Assembly (NCBI RefSeq): GCF_025370785.1
Contig: NZ_JAMXFA010000018.1
Location: 1 to 64,000 of the forward strand
Length of the DNA stretch: 64,000 bases
Direction: 5' to 3'
DNA from: Laspinema olomoucense D3b
GTDB lineage: Bacteria > Cyanobacteriota > Cyanobacteriia > Cyanobacteriales > Laspinemataceae
Shown here: in pieces, positions 42,950 to 49,755 of the stretch
How the letters are laid out: the number at the start of each line of letters is the position of its first letter
Position numbering within the stretch: position 1 is the stretch's first letter
Notes under the pieces: model-generated
What the model was told of the DNA's origin: nothing
What the model saw: the letters and a program-made list of their open reading frames with translations, nothing else
Database searches by the model: none
Position numbers and translations under genes: made by a program

Positions 42950-43543
42950 GATTGTACCTCCACCTTTTTCTAAAAATTTGATAAATTTCCACAGGTTTTC
43001 CGCTGGGTAGGACTGGGTACAAAACTCTGACTCCTACCGATTCAGAGCCAGTTTAGCCTGGTCTCGGGTGGGTCTCCCACTATCCCGGGATATATTTTGG
43101 CGATGAAATTTTCGGGCGTCGCTACAGTCAGGGCAAGACTAACGGAATTACTCCCCAACATTTTTACTCATGCGGACCCCATTAGACCGATTAACCGGGC
43201 TTCTTGGGGTCTTTATCTCATCCCTAGGGGAATGTCCCCGACTCGGGCAAATCAGGGGTTACCAGCGGACGTCCGATGCTCAATTTGGGGGCGATCGCCC
43301 GTTAGATTTCTTGAGAGTCTAGGGGAGAAGACTTCTCCGTAAACGGCGATCGCCGCTTCACCGAGAAGGATTGCGGATGGCAGCAATTTCAGGAGGCGAT
43401 CGCCGCTTTACCCCGAAGGATTGCGGGTTGACTCTTGCATCCTTCGAGGCAAGCTCAGTGATTAAATTTGTTAACGCAGCAGAAAACACAGCGCAACTAT
43501 CTTTTCCAAGTCAAATATAGATTCTCCTTATGTAGTTTAATAT
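42950..43543. other. Intergenic stretch rich in HIP1 and direct repeats
   Basis: About 590 bp with no convincing gene (an 81-codon plus frame at 43097-43342 has no RBS or recognisable features). It contains two 32-bp near-identical units, each starting with a HIP1 octamer, at 43345-43376 and 43395-43426. Confidence 0.5.
43345..43426. repeat. Two 32-bp HIP1-headed direct repeats
   Basis: Units at 43345-43376 and 43395-43426 share GGCGATCGCCGCTT, then ACC, then GAAGGATTGCGG, with few changes, at a 50-bp period. A third HIP1 site is nearby at about 43300. Probably dispersed-repeat debris. Confidence 0.7.
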
Positions 43544-45007
43544 CTACGGAGAAATTCTTTGCCTAGCTTCAGCAAGTCTCTCTTCAGCTTGATTCATAAC
43601 TTGTGACATATTTTCCAGCATTTCTCCAGGATACTTCTCTAAAATTTTTGTTGAAAGGCTAATTTGAGTTCCCGAGACATTTATGATGACTGCTTTTATC
43701 ATTTGATTGGATATAAATAAATTTTTAATGTGGCTAGGAAACACAAACTTATTGCTTATTTGACTTTTATGGAGCAATCCCCATAACCCCTTACAATTAA
43801 CAAATACACCATAATCTTCTGTTTTCATTATTTCTCCTTCAATAAGCTGGCCCGTTTCAAAAGAAGAAGCTTTAAGCAGTTTTTCTGAAAATTTTAATTG
43901 TTGAGTTGCTTTGGTTATTTCTAAAATTAAAACTTCTAATGATTGACCAACAAGGCCCCGGTAGGTGTGGGGTAGTTGCACTAGATCTTTTTTATATATA
44001 AAAGAACTCATATTAAATATGTTAACAACGATACCCTCATTATTGACACTTGTTATCTGAACCTCTATCATTTCCTTTTTGTCATATTTTTCTTGTAAGA
44101 TTTCCCAAGGGTCGGAGAATTTCGGGAGTCCTCCTTTTCGTGGTCCGGGTGGTTGTCGTGGTCCGGGTGGTTGTCGTGGTTCGGGTCGAGACTTAACTGC
44201 ATCTAATACTTGCGTTGCTGTCCAACGCTGTTTCGGGTCTCTAATCAAACACCCACCCACAATTTTATCAAAAGGTGCAGGAAGATTTTCAGCTAATTGT
44301 AGTCTATCAGCTGTCATGATTTCTACTTGTAAAACTTGATCAGTGCTCGTGTTGAATGGTAATTTTCCGGTTAGCATTTCTATAATCATTACACCTAAAG
44401 ACCATAAATCCCAAGGTAATGAAGTAATTCCTTGATATGACTCAGGTGGAGCATATTCTTTAGTACCCATTATTAAACTGGTGACACGAACTCCTTGGGG
44501 GTTGGTCTCCCCCGCTATACCAAAATCGCCGATTTTCCACTCTTCGCCCATTCGCATTACATTTCCGGGCTTCAAATCTCGATGTACAATAGGCTCAGTC
44601 TGACCGTGCATATACTCCAGTGCTGAAGCCAGACTTTTGACTACCTCTACCACTTCTATTTTTGATAAAGGAGAATTTGGGCTTAAGCGGTCGCCTAACG
44701 TTCCGTTTGCCACATCCATCACCAGAAACAAAAACTGGTCATTGTTTATTTGCCATTCACCTACATCTAAAGCTCGTACTAGGTGAGGGTGATTTAGCCG
44801 ACTGGCAGCATCTAGTTCCTTCAAATGCCGATCAAAGTTCTCTGTATCAGTGGACCGAAGTTTTACAGCATATTGGTGTGCCAGTATCCGGTCTCCTATA
44901 ATCTTGTTTGCCCGAAAAACACATCCCTCGCCTCCTACGCCTAATATTTCTACTAGACTATAGTCTTTAACTTTCTGTCCTCTTAGAAATCCCCATCCCC
45001 CGTTCAT
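43544..45007 (-). CDS. Ser/Thr protein kinase fused to two S1 RNA-binding domains
   Basis: A 487-residue protein. Residues about 16-270 are a Hanks-type kinase: Gly-loop GVGGEGCVF, Lys49 in YAVKL, HRDLKPGN (Asp144), DFG (Asp161), APE-like YAPPES. A proline-rich linker (RQPPGPRQPPGPR) leads to two S1 domains at about 308-380 (IEVQITSVNNEGIVVNI ... LKFSEKLLKA) and 384-456 (GQLIEGEIMKTEDYGVFVN ... GLWGLLHKSQIS). The tail STKILEKYPGEMLENMSQVM and AEERLAEARQ resembles cyanobacterial ribosomal-protein-S1-type proteins. No transmembrane segment. The ATG overlaps the stop of the PP2C gene. The kinase would act on, or be recruited to, RNA or ribosomes (inference). Confidence 0.9.
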   Translation of the reverse strand: MNGGWGFLRGQKVKDYSLVEILGVGGEGCVFRANKIIGDRILAHQYAVKLRSTDTENFDRHLKELDAASRLNHPHLVRALDVGEWQINNDQFLFLVMDVANGTLGDRLSPNSPLSKIEVVEVVKSLASALEYMHGQTEPIVHRDLKPGNVMRMGEEWKIGDFGIAGETNPQGVRVTSLIMGTKEYAPPESYQGITSLPWDLWSLGVMIIEMLTGKLPFNTSTDQVLQVEIMTADRLQLAENLPAPFDKIVGGCLIRDPKQRWTATQVLDAVKSRPEPRQPPGPRQPPGPRKGGLPKFSDPWEILQEKYDKKEMIEVQITSVNNEGIVVNIFNMSSFIYKKDLVQLPHTYRGLVGQSLEVLILEITKATQQLKFSEKLLKASSFETGQLIEGEIMKTEDYGVFVNCKGLWGLLHKSQISNKFVFPSHIKNLFISNQMIKAVIINVSGTQISLSTKILEKYPGEMLENMSQVMNQAEERLAEARQRISP

Positions 45008-45813
45008 CAGTTATCTTCCTCCTGAACTAAAATAGCCACCATACTAATGTTATCTTTTCCTCCTTGTTTTAAGGCATTATTTACACAATTTTTGGTTAAC
45101 TCTGATGGAGATTTTTTATGGATTTTAACGAAATATTGTAACTCCGAATCACTCATTTCTCCATGTAACCCGTCACTGCATAAAACTAACACATCCCCAG
45201 GATGCAATTCTCGAAGAACGGGAGAGTTAGGATCATTCCATTTAGGGTCAACTGATAATCTAGCTTTTTCCCCACCGCCTAAACAGGACGTGACAACAGA
45301 ACGCATAGGGTGATTAACCGATTCTTCCGGAGTAATTTCGCCTAGTTTCAAGAGGACGCTGATGGGTGTATGATCCGATGTTACATAAGGGGAAGCATCA
45401 CCACTAAAATGATAAAAACGACAGTCTCCAGCATACAGATGTAAACATTCACTCTGTGTAATAATAGCGGCCACCACTGTGGCCCCCATTTTCATCAAGC
45501 CAAAGTCTTGCGATGCTTGCTCTCGAATTGCTTGGTCAGCAGCATGAAAACCCTGCAAGAGGAAATGATAGCGTTCTTCTGGTGTTGCAGGTAAAGGCTG
45601 CTTTAATAGTTCTTTGAAAGTATCAATGGCAATTTTAGCCGCCTCTTTCCCTCCTCGTTGTCCCCCCATTCCATCAGCAACAACGGCTAAAAGTGCTGAT
45701 TTATCGGGCCAAGGCTTGACAAACTTAGCGTCTTCGTTAACTTTTCGCACTTGGCCCTTGTTGGTTTTCTGATCATAAACCAGTCTTAGCTTGCTCAGTT
45801 CCTTATCTGACAT
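45007..45813 (-). CDS. PP2C-family Ser/Thr protein phosphatase
   Basis: A 268-residue bacterial PP2C (PPM) phosphatase. Metal-binding motifs are present: Asp27 region with NEDAKF, VADGMGGQRGG, a GAT motif in MGATVVAAI, the SDHTPIS segment, VLVLCSDGL and the final GGKDNISMVAI. It should reverse phosphorylation by the downstream kinase, with which it shares an ATGA overlap. It begins 21 bp after the VWA gene. Short, cytosolic, no sensor domain. The TNKGQVRKVNEDA start is standard for the family. Confidence 0.92.
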   Translation of the reverse strand: MSDKELSKLRLVYDQKTNKGQVRKVNEDAKFVKPWPDKSALLAVVADGMGGQRGGKEAAKIAIDTFKELLKQPLPATPEERYHFLLQGFHAADQAIREQASQDFGLMKMGATVVAAIITQSECLHLYAGDCRFYHFSGDASPYVTSDHTPISVLLKLGEITPEESVNHPMRSVVTSCLGGGEKARLSVDPKWNDPNSPVLRELHPGDVLVLCSDGLHGEMSDSELQYFVKIHKKSPSELTKNCVNNALKQGGKDNISMVAILVQEEDN

Positions 45814-45834
45814 CTTTAATTACTATGTCTGCTA

Positions 45835-47052
45835 TTACGATTTTTGGACGTTTTCCCAAGCTCTAGTCTTGCGACCTTCATCCACTTTACCAGTTTTTTC
45901 CAGGTCGTTTTTTAATTGAGCAACTTGTTCCGCCAGTTCGCTTAACCCATCTTGTAAGGTATCTATTTCTAGTCGATCCAATAACTGCCTCGTCCGTTTG
46001 GGATCGTTTTCTCGAATCAAGCTGTTCATATTCTCCTTAATTTCCCAAAGCTTGCGGTTGTTGTCTACATCATTGTTAAGCTGTTCCGCTTCTGTGGCCG
46101 ATTTAGTGTAAAGAATAGAGGCTTTCCCACTGACTTTAGATAAATTGGTAGCGGTTAACTCAACTTGCAGCAACTCACGGCTACCTAAAGATTCCCCGAC
46201 ACCTAATTTGGGGATTTCCACTTTGACCAGTATATCCGTTGGGGTATCGGTCCGAATCACTCCAATATTCAGCTTTCCCTTGGCTGTTTCTTCTAATGGC
46301 AAGTAATCAGGTCTGAATCGACAGAAGGCTTTGAGGGTAACTTCAGATTTGGGAGTAAACTGAATTTGGGCATCATCAATGGCGATCGCTTGGCTTGCGG
46401 TTAGCCTTTCTCTTAATTTAGGCTGTAGTTCTGATGGAGTTTCAGCATAGATAAACTCCCCTTGTCCTCGATTACCCAAATCAATCAGAAAGACGTTGTT
46501 AAAGTTACTCGCATTTCCCAAACCTACCGGATAAATTAAAATCCCTGATTTGCTCAATTCAGCAGCTTTATCCAGCAAGGCAGTCACATCACTGAGAATA
46601 GCTCCTTGAGAAGTTGTGGCATGACCATCGGTAATCAAAATTCCTACACGAACAACGCCTTTTTCCTCTGGTAAAGTCTTCTGAATCCACTCTAATGCCA
46701 TATCTGTACGAGTGACGCCAGACGCTTGCAGCTTCGTGATGGCTGTATTTGCAGCATCTAAGGCTTCTGAACCACCGGCCAGAGATTTGAGCAGAGGCTG
46801 TACTTGAGTGGAGAAACTAGCCAACTCTAGGCGATCTATCTTGCGTAATTGAGCCACAACAGAACGGCAGGTTTCTTTGGCTGCTGTTAGTTTTTCCCCT
46901 TGCATGGAACTGCTAGTATCTAAGGCGATCGCCATCCTTAAGGGCAATCCTACTGTATTCGATTGGGGACGAATTTGTACCCTTAATACATGATCAGTCG
47001 ATTGATTCCAAGTTTTGGCTGGTTTATTCCAGGCTAGTTCTAAATTAAACAT
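45835..47052 (-). CDS. VWA-domain protein, TerY-like, of the kinase operon
   Basis: A 405-residue protein. The VWA domain has a complete MIDAS: DTSSS (Asp45, Ser47, Ser49), Thr114/116 in GVTRTDMAL and Asp142 in LITDGHAT. A beta-rich middle (FTPKSEVTLKAFCRFRPDYL) and a helical C-terminus (LDRLEIDTLQDGLSELAEQVAQLKND) follow. VWA - PP2C - kinase triads are known as TerY-P modules, linked by comparative genomics to stress and metal responses. The VWA protein probably binds the phosphorylated target or scaffolds kinase and phosphatase. AAGGA lies about ten bases before the ATG. First gene of the three-gene operon. Confidence 0.88.
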   Translation of the reverse strand: MFNLELAWNKPAKTWNQSTDHVLRVQIRPQSNTVGLPLRMAIALDTSSSMQGEKLTAAKETCRSVVAQLRKIDRLELASFSTQVQPLLKSLAGGSEALDAANTAITKLQASGVTRTDMALEWIQKTLPEEKGVVRVGILITDGHATTSQGAILSDVTALLDKAAELSKSGILIYPVGLGNASNFNNVFLIDLGNRGQGEFIYAETPSELQPKLRERLTASQAIAIDDAQIQFTPKSEVTLKAFCRFRPDYLPLEETAKGKLNIGVIRTDTPTDILVKVEIPKLGVGESLGSRELLQVELTATNLSKVSGKASILYTKSATEAEQLNNDVDNNRKLWEIKENMNSLIRENDPKRTRQLLDRLEIDTLQDGLSELAEQVAQLKNDLEKTGKVDEGRKTRAWENVQKS

Positions 47053-47346
47053 AATTTAAGTTTCCTTTAGGTCTGATTAAGTATTTTACTGGAGCCATTT
47101 ATGGTGGTTCACACAGTTATTCACGTATGTTTTTTGGAGTGCGAGCATCTTGCTCGCTATTGTTTGAGCGATCAAGATGCTCGCACTCCTTAGAATCTCT
47201 TCACCTCATGAGTCCAGGAACCGCTATATATCGATTATGAAAGCCCTCGGTGAGTTGTTGGGTCCCAAGCTATCAAAAACGGTATTTCATTCGTCAGATA
47301 TAACTGGACTCTGCTTAAAAAGCTAAAGGCAATTTATCCTGCTATA
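47053..47346. other. Upstream region of the VWA-PP2C-kinase operon
   Basis: About 294 bp dominated by a long palindrome (47136-47189). The operon promoter presumably lies between it and 47053. No ORF. Confidence 0.5.
47136..47189. repeat. 17-bp perfect inverted repeat, dispersed-repeat type
   Basis: GGAGTGCGAGCATCTTG (47136-47152) pairs exactly with 47173-47189, and inner CTCGCT/AGCG bases extend the hairpin. Related by its GAGCATCTT core to the palindrome at 22082-22133. In transcription toward the VWA gene it would form a strong leader hairpin. Confidence 0.85.
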
Positions 47347-47565
47347 TTACTGATGACTGCCTCCACACTTCTTTGCCAGTGATTTAATGTTACCCACAAA
47401 TTCTGGTGGCACGTTGATTATTTCCAAAATAAATTGATTTCTTTGGTCATCTACAGGAATATTTTTATCCCGATACTTAGAATTAGAAAAAATAGATTCC
47501 AGGCTATCCACAAACCTTTTTAATGAAGCGGTATCTGGAAAATTAGCTGATATGTTCATGTTCAT
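47347..47565 (-). CDS. Small unrecognised protein upstream of the VWA operon
   Basis: A 72-residue protein starting MNMNISANFPDTASLKRFVD and ending LAKKCGGSHQ. AAGGA just before the ATG (47565) supports it. It looks like a small alpha/beta protein without signal peptide. Same direction as the VWA-PP2C-kinase genes, but about 300 bp and a large hairpin lie between them. No family is recognised; it may be an accessory of that operon. Confidence 0.6.
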   Translation of the reverse strand: MNMNISANFPDTASLKRFVDSLESIFSNSKYRDKNIPVDDQRNQFILEIINVPPEFVGNIKSLAKKCGGSHQ

Positions 47566-47791
47566 GTATCCTTATAGTTTGAAGGTAGCGAGTCTAAATG
47601 AATTGGTCATTAAGAAATCGAACAAGATGTCAAGCCAATATGCATAGCGAAACTGATCGCCAATGACAAGCGGGCGCTTTACACAGTACCCAGGTTATAA
47701 GCCTTAGAGCTTTGTTAAAGTCCTGTAATGCTAACTATTCCTGGATGTTGGCTACGGGAGTTTACAATTTTCCTCTCGTTAGTGACGGGGT

Positions 47792-48040
47792 TTAATCTAA
47801 GCCAATTAGCCTCGGATCGGGAATCCCCCAAATTTCTTCTGCTGCCTCTATGGCATTATTATATGTGGGATTTTCGCAATAGGCATCATAAGCTTCGCCT
47901 GGGGGATAGGGTAGCAAGTCTTCTTCATCTTCATAGAGATCGTAATACGATTGGTCTTTTTCAACCTCTTGCGCTATATTTTCCGGCGATCGGGGTTGAT
48001 GGCTGTGATTATTCCCTTGGTTTGGGTTGTTTGTATTCAT
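47792..48040 (-). CDS. Small acidic unrecognised protein
   Basis: An 82-residue protein starting MNTNNPNQGNNHSHQPRSPE, with a disordered polar N-terminus and a strongly acidic, tyrosine-rich centre (SYYDLYEDEEDLLPYPPGEA) ending EEIWGIPDPRLIGLD. The protein-like, strand-specific composition supports coding; the frame could extend upstream to 48112. A 38-codon frame at 48057-48173 on the same strand just upstream (MAHLGDQLLIILSEAG) might be a leader or a separate micro-gene. The Shine-Dalgarno is weak. Function unknown. Confidence 0.5.
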   Translation of the reverse strand: MNTNNPNQGNNHSHQPRSPENIAQEVEKDQSYYDLYEDEEDLLPYPPGEAYDAYCENPTYNNAIEAAEEIWGIPDPRLIGLD

Positions 48041-48173
48041 TGCAGGAAATCCTTTGTCAGAAGATACGCTTAATCTCTTGGCTATACCGGGGTTTATGGG
48101 CGCGCAGTCCACATTGTTTGTGGATTCCCGCCTCCGAAAGTATGATTAGCAGTTGATCGCCTAAGTGAGCCAT

Positions 48174-48841
48174 GAACCCAGCTATAAAACGCTGGTATCC
48201 CGTTGGCTTTCAAAAACCCCGCTCTTGGGAGTCCCTCTATTCTCTGTATTGCCTCCCAATCTTACCTAATTATTAGAAGTCAATCTTATTATTGAGTATT
48301 TGGGCGGAGTTTTCAACCTGACTTTACAAAATTTATCATTTATTCGGGTGAGTACCAACTTTTCTGATATCTATCATCAACTATCCTCTATGTCAGGGGG
48401 TGCGATCGCGAACCGACTTGATTGCACTCAGGAATAGGTGTTTGCAAAACTGAAAACCGCTTAGAGCATCTGGCGCAAAACTGAGAAACCGGATTTCTGG
48501 ACCGTTGAATCTAAGACGCTACTCGGATCCTAAAACAGAATTTAGCAAATCGTTGGTGGACTTGAGGCTGTGTCAATCTTGTCTGTCAAAAAACGATGAC
48601 TTAGACTATGTTACCCGATTCAGACGGGTCAATTTTCGATAAGCCACAACCTCTGTGACTGTAATTGTCCATAGCTTACTTGTCCAGAGACTTGGTTCAA
48701 GCGGGATGCGGTTGATGCCAATTGGCCTCTGGACCCACTTCCCTTTCTCAACCCTGGCGGTCCTCTGTTTGCTCTATTTAACCCCCCTGTTTTATCAAAA
48801 TATCCTAAGTCAATTTGATTTTCTAATATTTGGGAAAACCC
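48174..48841. other. Intergenic stretch, no supported gene
   Basis: About 670 bp upstream of the XRE genes. A 77-codon plus frame (48655-48888) has a hydrophobic middle but overlaps the XRE promoter and operator and lacks an RBS, so it is not called. Copies of the GAAACCGG/ATTTCTGG dispersed repeat occur near 48485. Confidence 0.45.
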
Positions 48842-48870
48842 TTGAATTTTCTCTGAGGGAAATATATACT
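48842..48870 (+). promoter_or_regulatory. Sigma-70-type promoter of the first XRE gene
   Basis: -35 TTGAAT (48842-48847) and -10 TATACT (48865-48870) are separated by exactly 17 bp. The -10 is directly followed by the palindromic operator at 48871-48890, so a bound repressor would cover the transcription start. Confidence 0.7.
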
Positions 48871-48890
48871 ATTCATGTAGATACATGAAT
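48871..48890. promoter_or_regulatory. Palindromic operator of the first XRE gene
   Basis: ATTCATGTA and its perfect complement TACATGAAT are separated by 2 bases. The half-site TCATGTA recurs before the second XRE gene (49340-49356), supporting binding by these paralogous regulators and autoregulation. Confidence 0.75.
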
Positions 48891-48904
48891 TTTTGATAAA
48901 TTGC

Positions 48905-49246
48905 ATGGAGTTTTCCCTTGGTCCTCGGCTGCGTGCCACCCGGCAACGACTTGGTTTAACTCAGGAACAGGTTATTGAACAGCTTAAAGACTGCTATGGT
49001 GTCACGATGAGTCAACAGGCGCTCTCTTGTATTGAACATGGCAAGCGCAAGATTGATGCGGAACGGGAATTACCGGCATTAGCAGCAGTGTATGGTCAGG
49101 CGATCGATTCGTTTTATCAGTCTTGGACTCTACCGGCAGTGGTGGAGGCTCCCTCGGTGTCTGGGGGTGATTTACAGTCTCTGACCCCGGAGGAGAAATT
49201 TCATCTGGCGATCGCCCTCCTGCATCAAGTTTTCCTCAATTCCTAG
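48905..49246 (+). CDS. XRE-family transcriptional regulator (paralogue 1)
   Basis: A 113-residue protein with an N-terminal Xre/Cro HTH: LGPRLRATRQRLGLTQEQVIEQL, YGVTMSQQALSCIEHGKRKIDAERELPALAAVYG. The C-terminal 40 residues (LTPEEKFHLAIALLHQVF) form a short helix probably for dimerisation. ATG at 48905 is taken; the frame also opens at TTG 48893. It lies just downstream of a palindromic operator, suggesting autorepression. The second copy, 119 bp downstream, shares about three quarters of the HTH region. Confidence 0.88.
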   Translation: MEFSLGPRLRATRQRLGLTQEQVIEQLKDCYGVTMSQQALSCIEHGKRKIDAERELPALAAVYGQAIDSFYQSWTLPAVVEAPSVSGGDLQSLTPEEKFHLAIALLHQVFLNS

Positions 49247-49339
49247 CGGTTCTGAGTGGCTCCTCCGGGGGCCATACATGATTATTGGAATTGGACATTT
49301 TTATCGGATACTACCGAGACTCTGGAGAATGTAAGACTT

Positions 49340-49356
49340 TCGTGTAGTTTACATGA
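49340..49356. promoter_or_regulatory. Operator of the second XRE gene
   Basis: TCGTGTA and TACATGA half-sites separated by 3 bases, ending 9 bp before the ATG. It matches the 48871-48890 palindrome except for one base and the spacer. A further lone half-site TACATGA is at 49275-49281. Confidence 0.65.
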
Positions 49357-49365
49357 TTTTCTGAT

Positions 49366-49755
49366 ATGGCCTTCTCCCTCGGCAAGCGTCTCAAGGCTAC
49401 CCGCGAGTCCCTCGGATTGACTCAAGAACAGGTGATCGAACAGCTAGAGATTCGCTATGGGGTGAGTCTCAGCCAACAAGCGATGTCCTCGATTGAAAAT
49501 GGCAAGCGCAAGGTGGATGCGGAACGGGAATTACCGGCATTAGCGGCAGTTTATGGTCAGGCGATCGATTCATTCTACGATTCCTGGGCGTTGCCGGAGG
49601 GGGGGAAATCTCAGAAACGCGCGTTTGCTGCACCGGCTGTGCGATCGCCCCAGGATGTGAGAGCGATCGCCCCGGTGGATTTGGAGGCCCTCACAAAACG
49701 GGATATGTTAGAACTGGCGGCTGAACTAATTTATAATGTTTTAGAAGAACCTTAG
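49366..49755 (+). CDS. XRE-family transcriptional regulator (paralogue 2)
   Basis: A 129-residue paralogue of the upstream regulator: FSLGKRLKATRESLGLTQEQ, YGVSLSQQAMSSIENGKRKVDAERELPALAAVYGQAIDSFYDSW. The C-terminal tail is longer (LEALTKRDMLELAAELIYNVLEE) with an Arg/Ala-rich linker. Tandem duplication with separate operators suggests the two proteins cross-regulate. The target beyond themselves is unknown; no toxin gene lies next to them. Confidence 0.88.
   Translation: MAFSLGKRLKATRESLGLTQEQVIEQLEIRYGVSLSQQAMSSIENGKRKVDAERELPALAAVYGQAIDSFYDSWALPEGGKSQKRAFAAPAVRSPQDVRAIAPVDLEALTKRDMLELAAELIYNVLEEP

What the first reader, a model, noticed from the sequence alone, without database searches (positions are those of the whole stretch)
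43544..47052. VWA - PP2C - kinase triad whose kinase carries a ribosomal-S1-like tail
Seen: three same-strand genes with 21 bp and ATGA junctions encode a VWA protein with complete MIDAS, a PP2C phosphatase and a Hanks kinase followed by two S1 domains and a C-terminus (STKILEKYPGEMLENM) like cyanobacterial ribosomal-protein-S1 relatives. Known: VWA-PP2C-kinase triads are described as TerY-P stress modules. Inference: fusion to S1 domains would direct reversible phosphorylation to RNA, ribosomes or an RNase complex, a form of the triad I do not know to be described.
Basis: partly seen in the sequence, partly recalled or inferred. Interest (0 to 1): 0.85.

Follow-up and report, generated by a model that had tools for sequence, protein, structure and literature searches.

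The report
Signalling kinase with borrowed ribosomal tail
A cyanobacterium carries a three-gene phosphorylation switch whose kinase ends in a pair of RNA-binding domains copied from a relative of ribosomal protein S1, and related tails sit on other, unrelated proteins, which suggests a portable arm that points stress or defence proteins at RNA or ribosomes.

Summary
Window 43544-47052 (minus strand) encodes a VWA protein, a PP2C phosphatase and a Hanks kinase with intact catalytic motifs that ends in two S1 domains. The fusion recurs in two congeners, one a 3-contig assembly. The tail groups with Rps1B, the cyanobacterial S1 paralogue, rather than with the 30S protein. 'TerY-P' membership is not shown: the nearest VWA and PP2C relatives seen sit with an FHA protein. 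Kinase-OB-fold triads are already mentioned in print as antiphage systems. First, the tail is modular: tails of the same clade end an Hsp70 and a UvrD helicase, and a second tail clade ends dynamin-like GTPases and the kinase of a different VWA-PP2C-kinase operon beside restriction-like genes. Second, the triad is an insertion in 3 of 8 congeners; its VWA is 98% identical between species while its S1 domains are 54-77% identical. Best reading, moderate confidence: an accessory conflict or stress kinase aimed at RNA or ribosomes by a fast-changing S1 arm. RNA binding, substrate and defence role are untested.

The parts
45835..47052 (-). VWA protein, 405 aa, MIDAS motifs present; first gene of the set
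   Evidence: 98.3 and 98.5% identical in two congeners
45007..45813 (-). PP2C-type Ser/Thr phosphatase, 268 aa
   Evidence: 92.5 and 94.4% identical in two congeners
43544..45007 (-). Hanks-type kinase fused to two S1 domains, 487 aa; start overlaps the PP2C stop by one base (TGATG)
44201..44962 (-). kinase domain (residues 16-269), catalytic motifs present
44114..44200 (-). Pro/Gly-rich linker (about residues 270-298); nucleotide identity to G113 drops here
43886..44083 (-). first S1 domain, 22.8 bits (cut-off 22)
43646..43861 (-). second S1 domain, 36.7 bits in the genome search
43544..43645 (-). C-terminal segment (KILEKYPGEMLENM...), similar in Rps1B and in the other S1-tailed proteins
43345..47916 (.). 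accessory segment with the triad: other or fewer genes at this site in the three congeners whose contigs span it (G170, G202, G212)

Best explanation
The three genes form one reversible-phosphorylation switch: an active Hanks kinase, the PP2C phosphatase that opposes it, and a VWA protein that probably scaffolds or gates the pair. The kinase's C-terminal S1 pair was taken from the cyanobacterial S1 paralogue Rps1B and probably works as an RNA- or ribosome-binding arm. It either senses an RNA or translation state or brings the kinase to ribosomal or mRNA-bound substrates. The gene set is an accessory, exchanged module, most likely for stress or antiphage conflict rather than housekeeping. Shown here: domain content, catalytic motifs, kinship of the tail, insertion at a variable site, uneven divergence, and other proteins with related tails. 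Inferred: co-expression, kinase and phosphatase activity, RNA or ribosome binding, signal, substrate, and defence role.
For: Domains and motifs. The tails of the three window-type kinases group with Hsp70 and UvrD tails (support 100/100), and all 10 S1-tailed proteins in the tree lie on the Rps1B side of a 100/99 branch, apart from Rps1A. Own Rps1A passes the NCBIfam 30S S1 cut-off (653.6 bits against 460), own Rps1B does not (291.5). PMC12475003 (passages) calls Rps1A and Rps1B RNA-dependent and involved in Shine-Dalgarno-independent initiation. Triad in 3 of 8 congeners, at a site with other or fewer genes in the three others whose contigs span it. VWA 98%, kinase domain 78-79%, S1 domains 54-77% identity, against 93-97% for flanking genes. 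A different VWA-PP2C-kinase operon in G117 also ends in an S1 pair and is followed by restriction-like ORFs. In print: kinase-OB triads as antiphage systems; kinase/PP2C/VWA and Hsp70/GrpE sets in predicted conflict systems (PMC7159879, passages).
Against: No defence gene beside the window triad: of 7 neighbouring ORFs scanned with PADLOC, only the two small HTH regulators gave matches, weak ones to HTH-containing models; the rest of the window was not scanned. For the triad itself PADLOC gave no match to the tail, one weak match each for PP2C and VWA, and generic kinase matches. RNA binding is untested, and likely contact positions vary: GVF of the second S1 is RVI in G130, LLH is FLY in G113. 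dN/dS is below 1 wherever it could be computed, so positive selection is not shown. G130's frame breaks near its end.
Confidence: 0.45

Rival explanations
1. The triad is an endogenous stress regulator of translation: the S1 arm docks the kinase on ribosomes or S1 proteins to adjust initiation, and phages have nothing to do with it.
For: Tail kinship with Rps1B, linked in print to translation initiation. VWA under strong constraint (dN/dS about 0.07). No defence gene recognised beside it.
Against: Window-type kinase found in 3 of 8 congeners and in none of the other 380 order genomes sampled at E up to 1e-60, at a variable site. A general translation regulator should be kept more widely.
Confidence: 0.25
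2. The S1 pair does not bind RNA but serves as a protein-protein adaptor, as effector-associated domains do in other conflict systems, linking the kinase to Rps1B or to other S1-tailed proteins.
For: Related tails on kinase, Hsp70, UvrD and dynamin-like proteins. Likely RNA-contact positions vary between copies (their role is recalled from other S1 domains).
Against: Each of the 6 genomes with a window-type tail has a single one, so no evident S1-tailed partner except Rps1B.
Confidence: 0.15
3. The tail is a passive remnant of a chance fusion and is drifting; its divergence reflects weak constraint.
For: dN/dS of the S1 domains about 0.39-0.55 against 0.04-0.14 in flanking genes. Frame break in G130. 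The kinase domain is also loose (0.41-0.68).
Against: S1 pair kept in frame at full length in two of three genomes; 53 of 206 alignment columns invariant across six tails; S1 tails on kinases of VWA-PP2C-kinase sets apparently arose twice.
Confidence: 0.1

Closest known systems
TerY-P triad (TerY-like VWA, PP2C, Ser/Thr kinase with C-terminal zinc ribbon), as described in PMC11090510
   Same: VWA, PP2C and Ser/Thr kinase genes together, with an extra C-terminal domain on the kinase.
   Different: Window VWA has no BLASTP match to the TerY-P-like VWA proteins of G117, Calothrix or Herpetosiphon; no zinc ribbon found; two Rps1B-like S1 domains instead.
TerY-P-like antiphage modules with a kinase C-terminal OB-fold (Gao et al. 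2020, as cited in PMC11090510; the review PMC7699616, passage read, says TerY-P acts against T7-like phages)
   Same: Kinase carrying a C-terminal OB-fold beside VWA and PP2C genes.
   Different: The OB family used there could not be examined. Here it is a tandem S1 pair akin to a cyanobacterial S1 paralogue.
Cyanobacterial VWA-PP2C-FHA loci (G037, G060, G202)
   Same: Closest relatives seen of the window VWA (43%, G037) and PP2C (48.5% G037, 50.6% G202).
   Different: The third gene is an FHA protein (Pfam), not a kinase-S1.
Rps1B, cyanobacterial S1 paralogue
   Same: Its second and third S1 domains and C-terminal segment align with the tail (37.6% identity).
   Different: The tail lacks the first domain, is fused to a kinase, and forms its own clade with Hsp70 and UvrD tails.
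G117 operon: VWA, PP2C and kinase with an S1 pair
   Same: Same overall plan, S1 pair at the kinase C-terminus.
   Different: VWA not matched by BLASTP; cysteine pairs like zinc ribbons on PP2C and kinase (by eye); tail in another clade; restriction-like ORFs downstream.

Membership tests
TerY-P triad | TerY-type VWA protein | tested here: not met
   No BLASTP match at E 0.01 in a 21-protein set to three TerY-P-like VWA proteins; the only VWA match is that of a VWA-PP2C-FHA locus. No curated TerY profile was at hand, and the comparison proteins were called TerY-P-like from their operons.
TerY-P triad | PP2C phosphatase gene beside it | tested here: met
TerY-P triad | Ser/Thr kinase with C-terminal zinc ribbon | tested here: not met
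   Kinase present; Pfam lists S1 and no zinc ribbon
TerY-P-like antiphage module with kinase-OB fusion | VWA, PP2C and kinase with C-terminal OB-fold | tested here: met
   (S1 is an OB-fold family)
TerY-P-like antiphage module with kinase-OB fusion | sequence relation to the system tested by Gao et al. | not tested
   paper not held; PADLOC showed no TerY-named match in the rows listed (25 of 34 for the kinase)
TerY-P-like antiphage module with kinase-OB fusion | protection against phage | not testable with these tools
   needs an experiment
Ribosomal protein S1 (30S bS1) | reaches the curated cyanobacterial S1 model NF005639 | tested here: not met
   66.7 bits against a cut-off of 460; own Rps1A reaches 653.6. 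The model spans a whole S1 protein, so a two-domain tail could hardly reach it.
S1 domain family (PF00575) | score over the Pfam cut-off | tested here: met
   36.7 and 22.8 bits against 22
Catalytically intact Hanks-type kinase | glycine loop, HRD, DFG and APE-type motifs | tested here: met
   (activity itself not tested)

The most novel reading that the evidence does not exclude
Some cyanobacteria use an Rps1B-derived S1 tail as a portable, quickly exchanged specificity arm that plugs different effectors (a VWA/PP2C-gated kinase, Hsp70 with GrpE, UvrD, a dynamin-like GTPase) onto ribosomes or translated RNA during conflict. In the window triad this would make a bacterial counterpart, in logic, of an RNA-sensing translation-arrest kinase such as PKR (analogy from recall).
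Probability: 0.22. Interest if true: 0.8.

Novelty: new variant of a known kind. Interest (0 to 1): 0.52.

Why it matters
If the S1 tail binds ribosomes or mRNA, this gene set links reversible Ser/Thr phosphorylation to translation in bacteria through a recognisable ribosome-derived part. It would give a concrete way to find the substrates of a VWA-PP2C-kinase module, a type already tied to antiphage defence. Related tails on a chaperone, a helicase and dynamin-like GTPases would define a shared adaptor, so that one binding experiment would inform several uncharacterised systems.

Tried and rejected
Viral contigs: 176 pattern matches, none confirmed. Phages: 10 records with S1-like matches, one annotated rpsA in a Microcystis phage; not examined further. 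Plasmids: 647 records match the kinase, none over 80% of it, and the 25 listed match the kinase part only; 105 match the G117 tail, the 40 listed being annotated ribosomal S1 or unannotated. Window VWA in plasmids: 5 weak matches, none over 80%. Rfam on 43000-49000: nothing. The class-wide A2 search does not separate fusions from Rps1B (S1 proteins of about 300 aa score up to 147 bits, the window 155), so it is not used as a count. I first took GE[MIL]L...VM..AE as a signature of the fusions; one search showed that Rps1B-type proteins carry it too, and I dropped it. Positive selection was considered and is not claimed.

Full report
WHAT IS THERE. The window is part of a 7.02 Mb genome; relatives found are cyanobacteria. 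Congener G130 is probably Oscillatoria sp. HE19RPO, since its contig C383 has the same length (97325) as the contig of L009 and the match lies at the same end. On the minus strand of 43544-47052 lie a VWA protein (405 aa), a PP2C phosphatase (268 aa) and a kinase (487 aa). Pfam and NCBIfam agree on the domains. Both S1 domains pass the Pfam cut-off in the genome search, the first only just (22.8 against 22 bits). Catalytic motifs of the kinase and the MIDAS motifs are present. Spacing is 21 bp and a 1-base TGATG overlap.

IS THE FUSION REAL. Congener G113 (3 contigs) has the same three genes, with a 521-aa kinase ending in the same S1 pair. G130 has VWA, PP2C and a kinase split over two contigs, with the S1 pair on the second; its frame breaks shortly before the usual end. 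A profile of six tails finds 6 of 388 genomes of the order at E up to 1e-60, and 1 of 388 of the class, the window's own; both samples are drawn from larger groups, and genomes recur in them. Of the six, three are kinases of VWA-PP2C-kinase sets, two are Hsp70 proteins (G136, G199), one is a UvrD helicase (G202). The six carriers are the six rows of the profile; this search added none.

WHERE THE TAIL COMES FROM. The own genome holds two S1 proteins of three domains each. One passes the NCBIfam model of 30S S1 (653.6 bits, cut-off 460); the other does not (291.5). I take the second for what the literature calls Rps1B; this is inference, not a direct comparison with slr1984. In a tree of 47 rows the tails of the window-type kinases, Hsp70 and UvrD form one clade (100/100), and all 10 S1-tailed proteins lie with Rps1B-type proteins across a 100/99 branch from own Rps1A. 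G117's kinase tail groups with three dynamin-like tails (94/83) on long branches, so its place is unsure. The label needs two changes on the tree; one origin is not ruled out. PMC12475003 (passages) says Rps1A and Rps1B of Synechocystis are involved in Shine-Dalgarno-independent initiation and are RNA-dependent.

THE TAIL ON OTHER PROTEINS. In G136 and G199 it ends an Hsp70 protein encoded beside a GrpE-domain protein and a UvrD-helicase/Hsp70 fusion. In G202 a UvrD part runs straight into the tail; the linker resembles the end of the Hsp70, so it looks like a deletion product of the same cluster (by eye; domains). In G276, G104 and G165 a dynamin-family protein of 937-979 aa ends in one S1 domain with a similar C-terminal segment. 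In the family of G276, 2 of 61 genomes (G276 and G698) have a match running through both parts. The other listed matches are either to the dynamin part, mostly in frames of about 800-890 aa without the S1 part, or to S1 proteins, mostly of about 300 aa. So the S1 version looks like a rare form of a common protein.

A SECOND TRIAD. In G117 a VWA-PP2C-kinase set ends in a kinase with an S1 pair; cysteine pairs on its kinase and PP2C look like zinc ribbons (by eye; the PP2C one scores just under an NCBIfam cut-off). Two ORFs downstream on the same strand match AAA_5 and a PADLOC type II restriction model, and RE_LlaJI. A search with its ribbon and S1 part gave 30 of 388 genomes at E up to 1e-43, but only G117 itself in a long frame; the other 29 are frames of 300-382 aa, S1 proteins by length. 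Its VWA relatives on plasmids of Calothrix and Herpetosiphon lie beside kinases for which I saw no S1 tail. So kinase-S1 fusion in such a set was seen in two apparently separate lineages, 4 genomes in all. The searches went by tail similarity and would miss weaker fusions and kinase-S1 proteins with other tails.

ACCESSORY AND UNEVENLY DIVERGED. The triad is in 3 of 8 congeners. Three other congeners have contigs that span the site. In G170 other genes fill about 4 kb, in G212 one ORF fills 1.3 kb, and in G202 about 0.6 kb remains, with a small ORF. The G143 and G079 contigs end before spanning it. Against G113 and G130: VWA 98.3 and 98.5% identity (dN 0.008, 0.006; dS 0.11, 0.08); PP2C 92.5 and 94.4%; kinase domain 79 and 78%; first S1 62 and 77%; second S1 with C-terminus 60 and 54% (dN 0.27, 0.35; dS 0.50, 0.77). 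Three flanking genes are 93-97% identical with dS 0.25-0.45. Nucleotide identity to G113 is 93-100% in 150-base bins from 45100 to 48099 (PP2C, VWA, upstream), 83-90% over the kinase domain, 70-74% over linker and S1 domains (43600-44199) and 85% at the very end. Low dS in VWA and PP2C suggests recent exchange between species; higher dS in the tail suggests an older or separately imported segment. dN/dS stays below 1, so diversifying selection is possible but not shown, and relaxed constraint is a real alternative.

RELATION TO WHAT IS KNOWN. The nearest VWA and PP2C relatives seen outside the triad are in VWA-PP2C-FHA loci of G037, G060 and G202 (43-51% identity; FHA by Pfam). The VWA search covered only the 14 family genomes and plasmids. 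In G202 the VWA frame is broken into pieces. PMC11090510 (passages) describes TerY-P as VWA, PP2C and a kinase with a zinc ribbon, and says that modules with an OB-fold in place of the ribbon are antiphage systems, citing Gao et al. 2020 (not held). PMC7159879 (passages) describes kinase, PP2C and VWA genes, and separately Hsp70 with GrpE, in predicted conflict systems, and S1-like OB-folds among effector domains. PMC8195603 (passages) mentions S1 domains in effectors of a ternary system. The search listings showed me no paper on an Rps1B-like tail on these proteins. They cover open-licence papers only and I read few of them, so this is no proof of absence.

HOW IT MOST LIKELY WORKS. Kinase and PP2C set a phosphorylation state, the VWA protein assembles or gates the pair, and the S1 pair brings the kinase to RNA or ribosomes. 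The patchy distribution, the exchange pattern and the restriction-like neighbours in G117 favour a conflict or stress role. Against this, the window neighbours are an ABC transporter, a peptidoglycan-binding domain protein, two HTH regulators and a class I/II aminotransferase. PADLOC finds nothing among them beyond weak HTH matches and nothing specific in the triad. RNA or ribosome binding, substrate, signal and defence are inference.

Noticed in passing
L043:5112-11957 and L044:4831-11772: Three-gene cluster in two genomes: a UvrD-helicase/Hsp70 fusion (1076 aa), a GrpE-domain coiled-coil protein (561 and 589 aa) and an Hsp70 ending in two S1 domains.
   Followed up: partly
L086:2413-8853: VWA, PP2C and kinase-S1-S1 genes followed by two restriction-like ORFs (AAA_5 and RE_LlaJI matches).
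   Followed up: partly
L082:1838-4777, L083:2713-5526, L084:4301-7228: Dynamin-family proteins with a C-terminal S1 domain; in the family of G276, 2 of 61 genomes have this long form.
   Followed up: partly
window 47136-47189: 23-nt inverted repeat (96% complementary) upstream of the VWA gene; similar copies at 11 other places of the genome (20 matches listed, strands counted apart), so a dispersed palindromic repeat.
   Followed up: yes
window 47050-47949: Stretch upstream of VWA that is 94-100% identical to G113, more than the flanking genes; no Rfam match, and the small ORF 47792-48112 at its far end has no Pfam match.
   Followed up: partly
window 48893-49755: Two neighbouring HTH_31 regulator genes that resemble each other.
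   Followed up: partly
phage record MW495066.1, 13368-13877: Microcystis phage MaAM05 carries a gene annotated 30S ribosomal protein S1, 30% identical to the kinase tail.
   Followed up: no
L085, L087, L088; L089-L091: Further S1-like proteins: frames of 457-476 aa that look like several S1 domains, and frames of 371-384 aa with an unknown N-terminal part and an S1-like end.
   Followed up: partly
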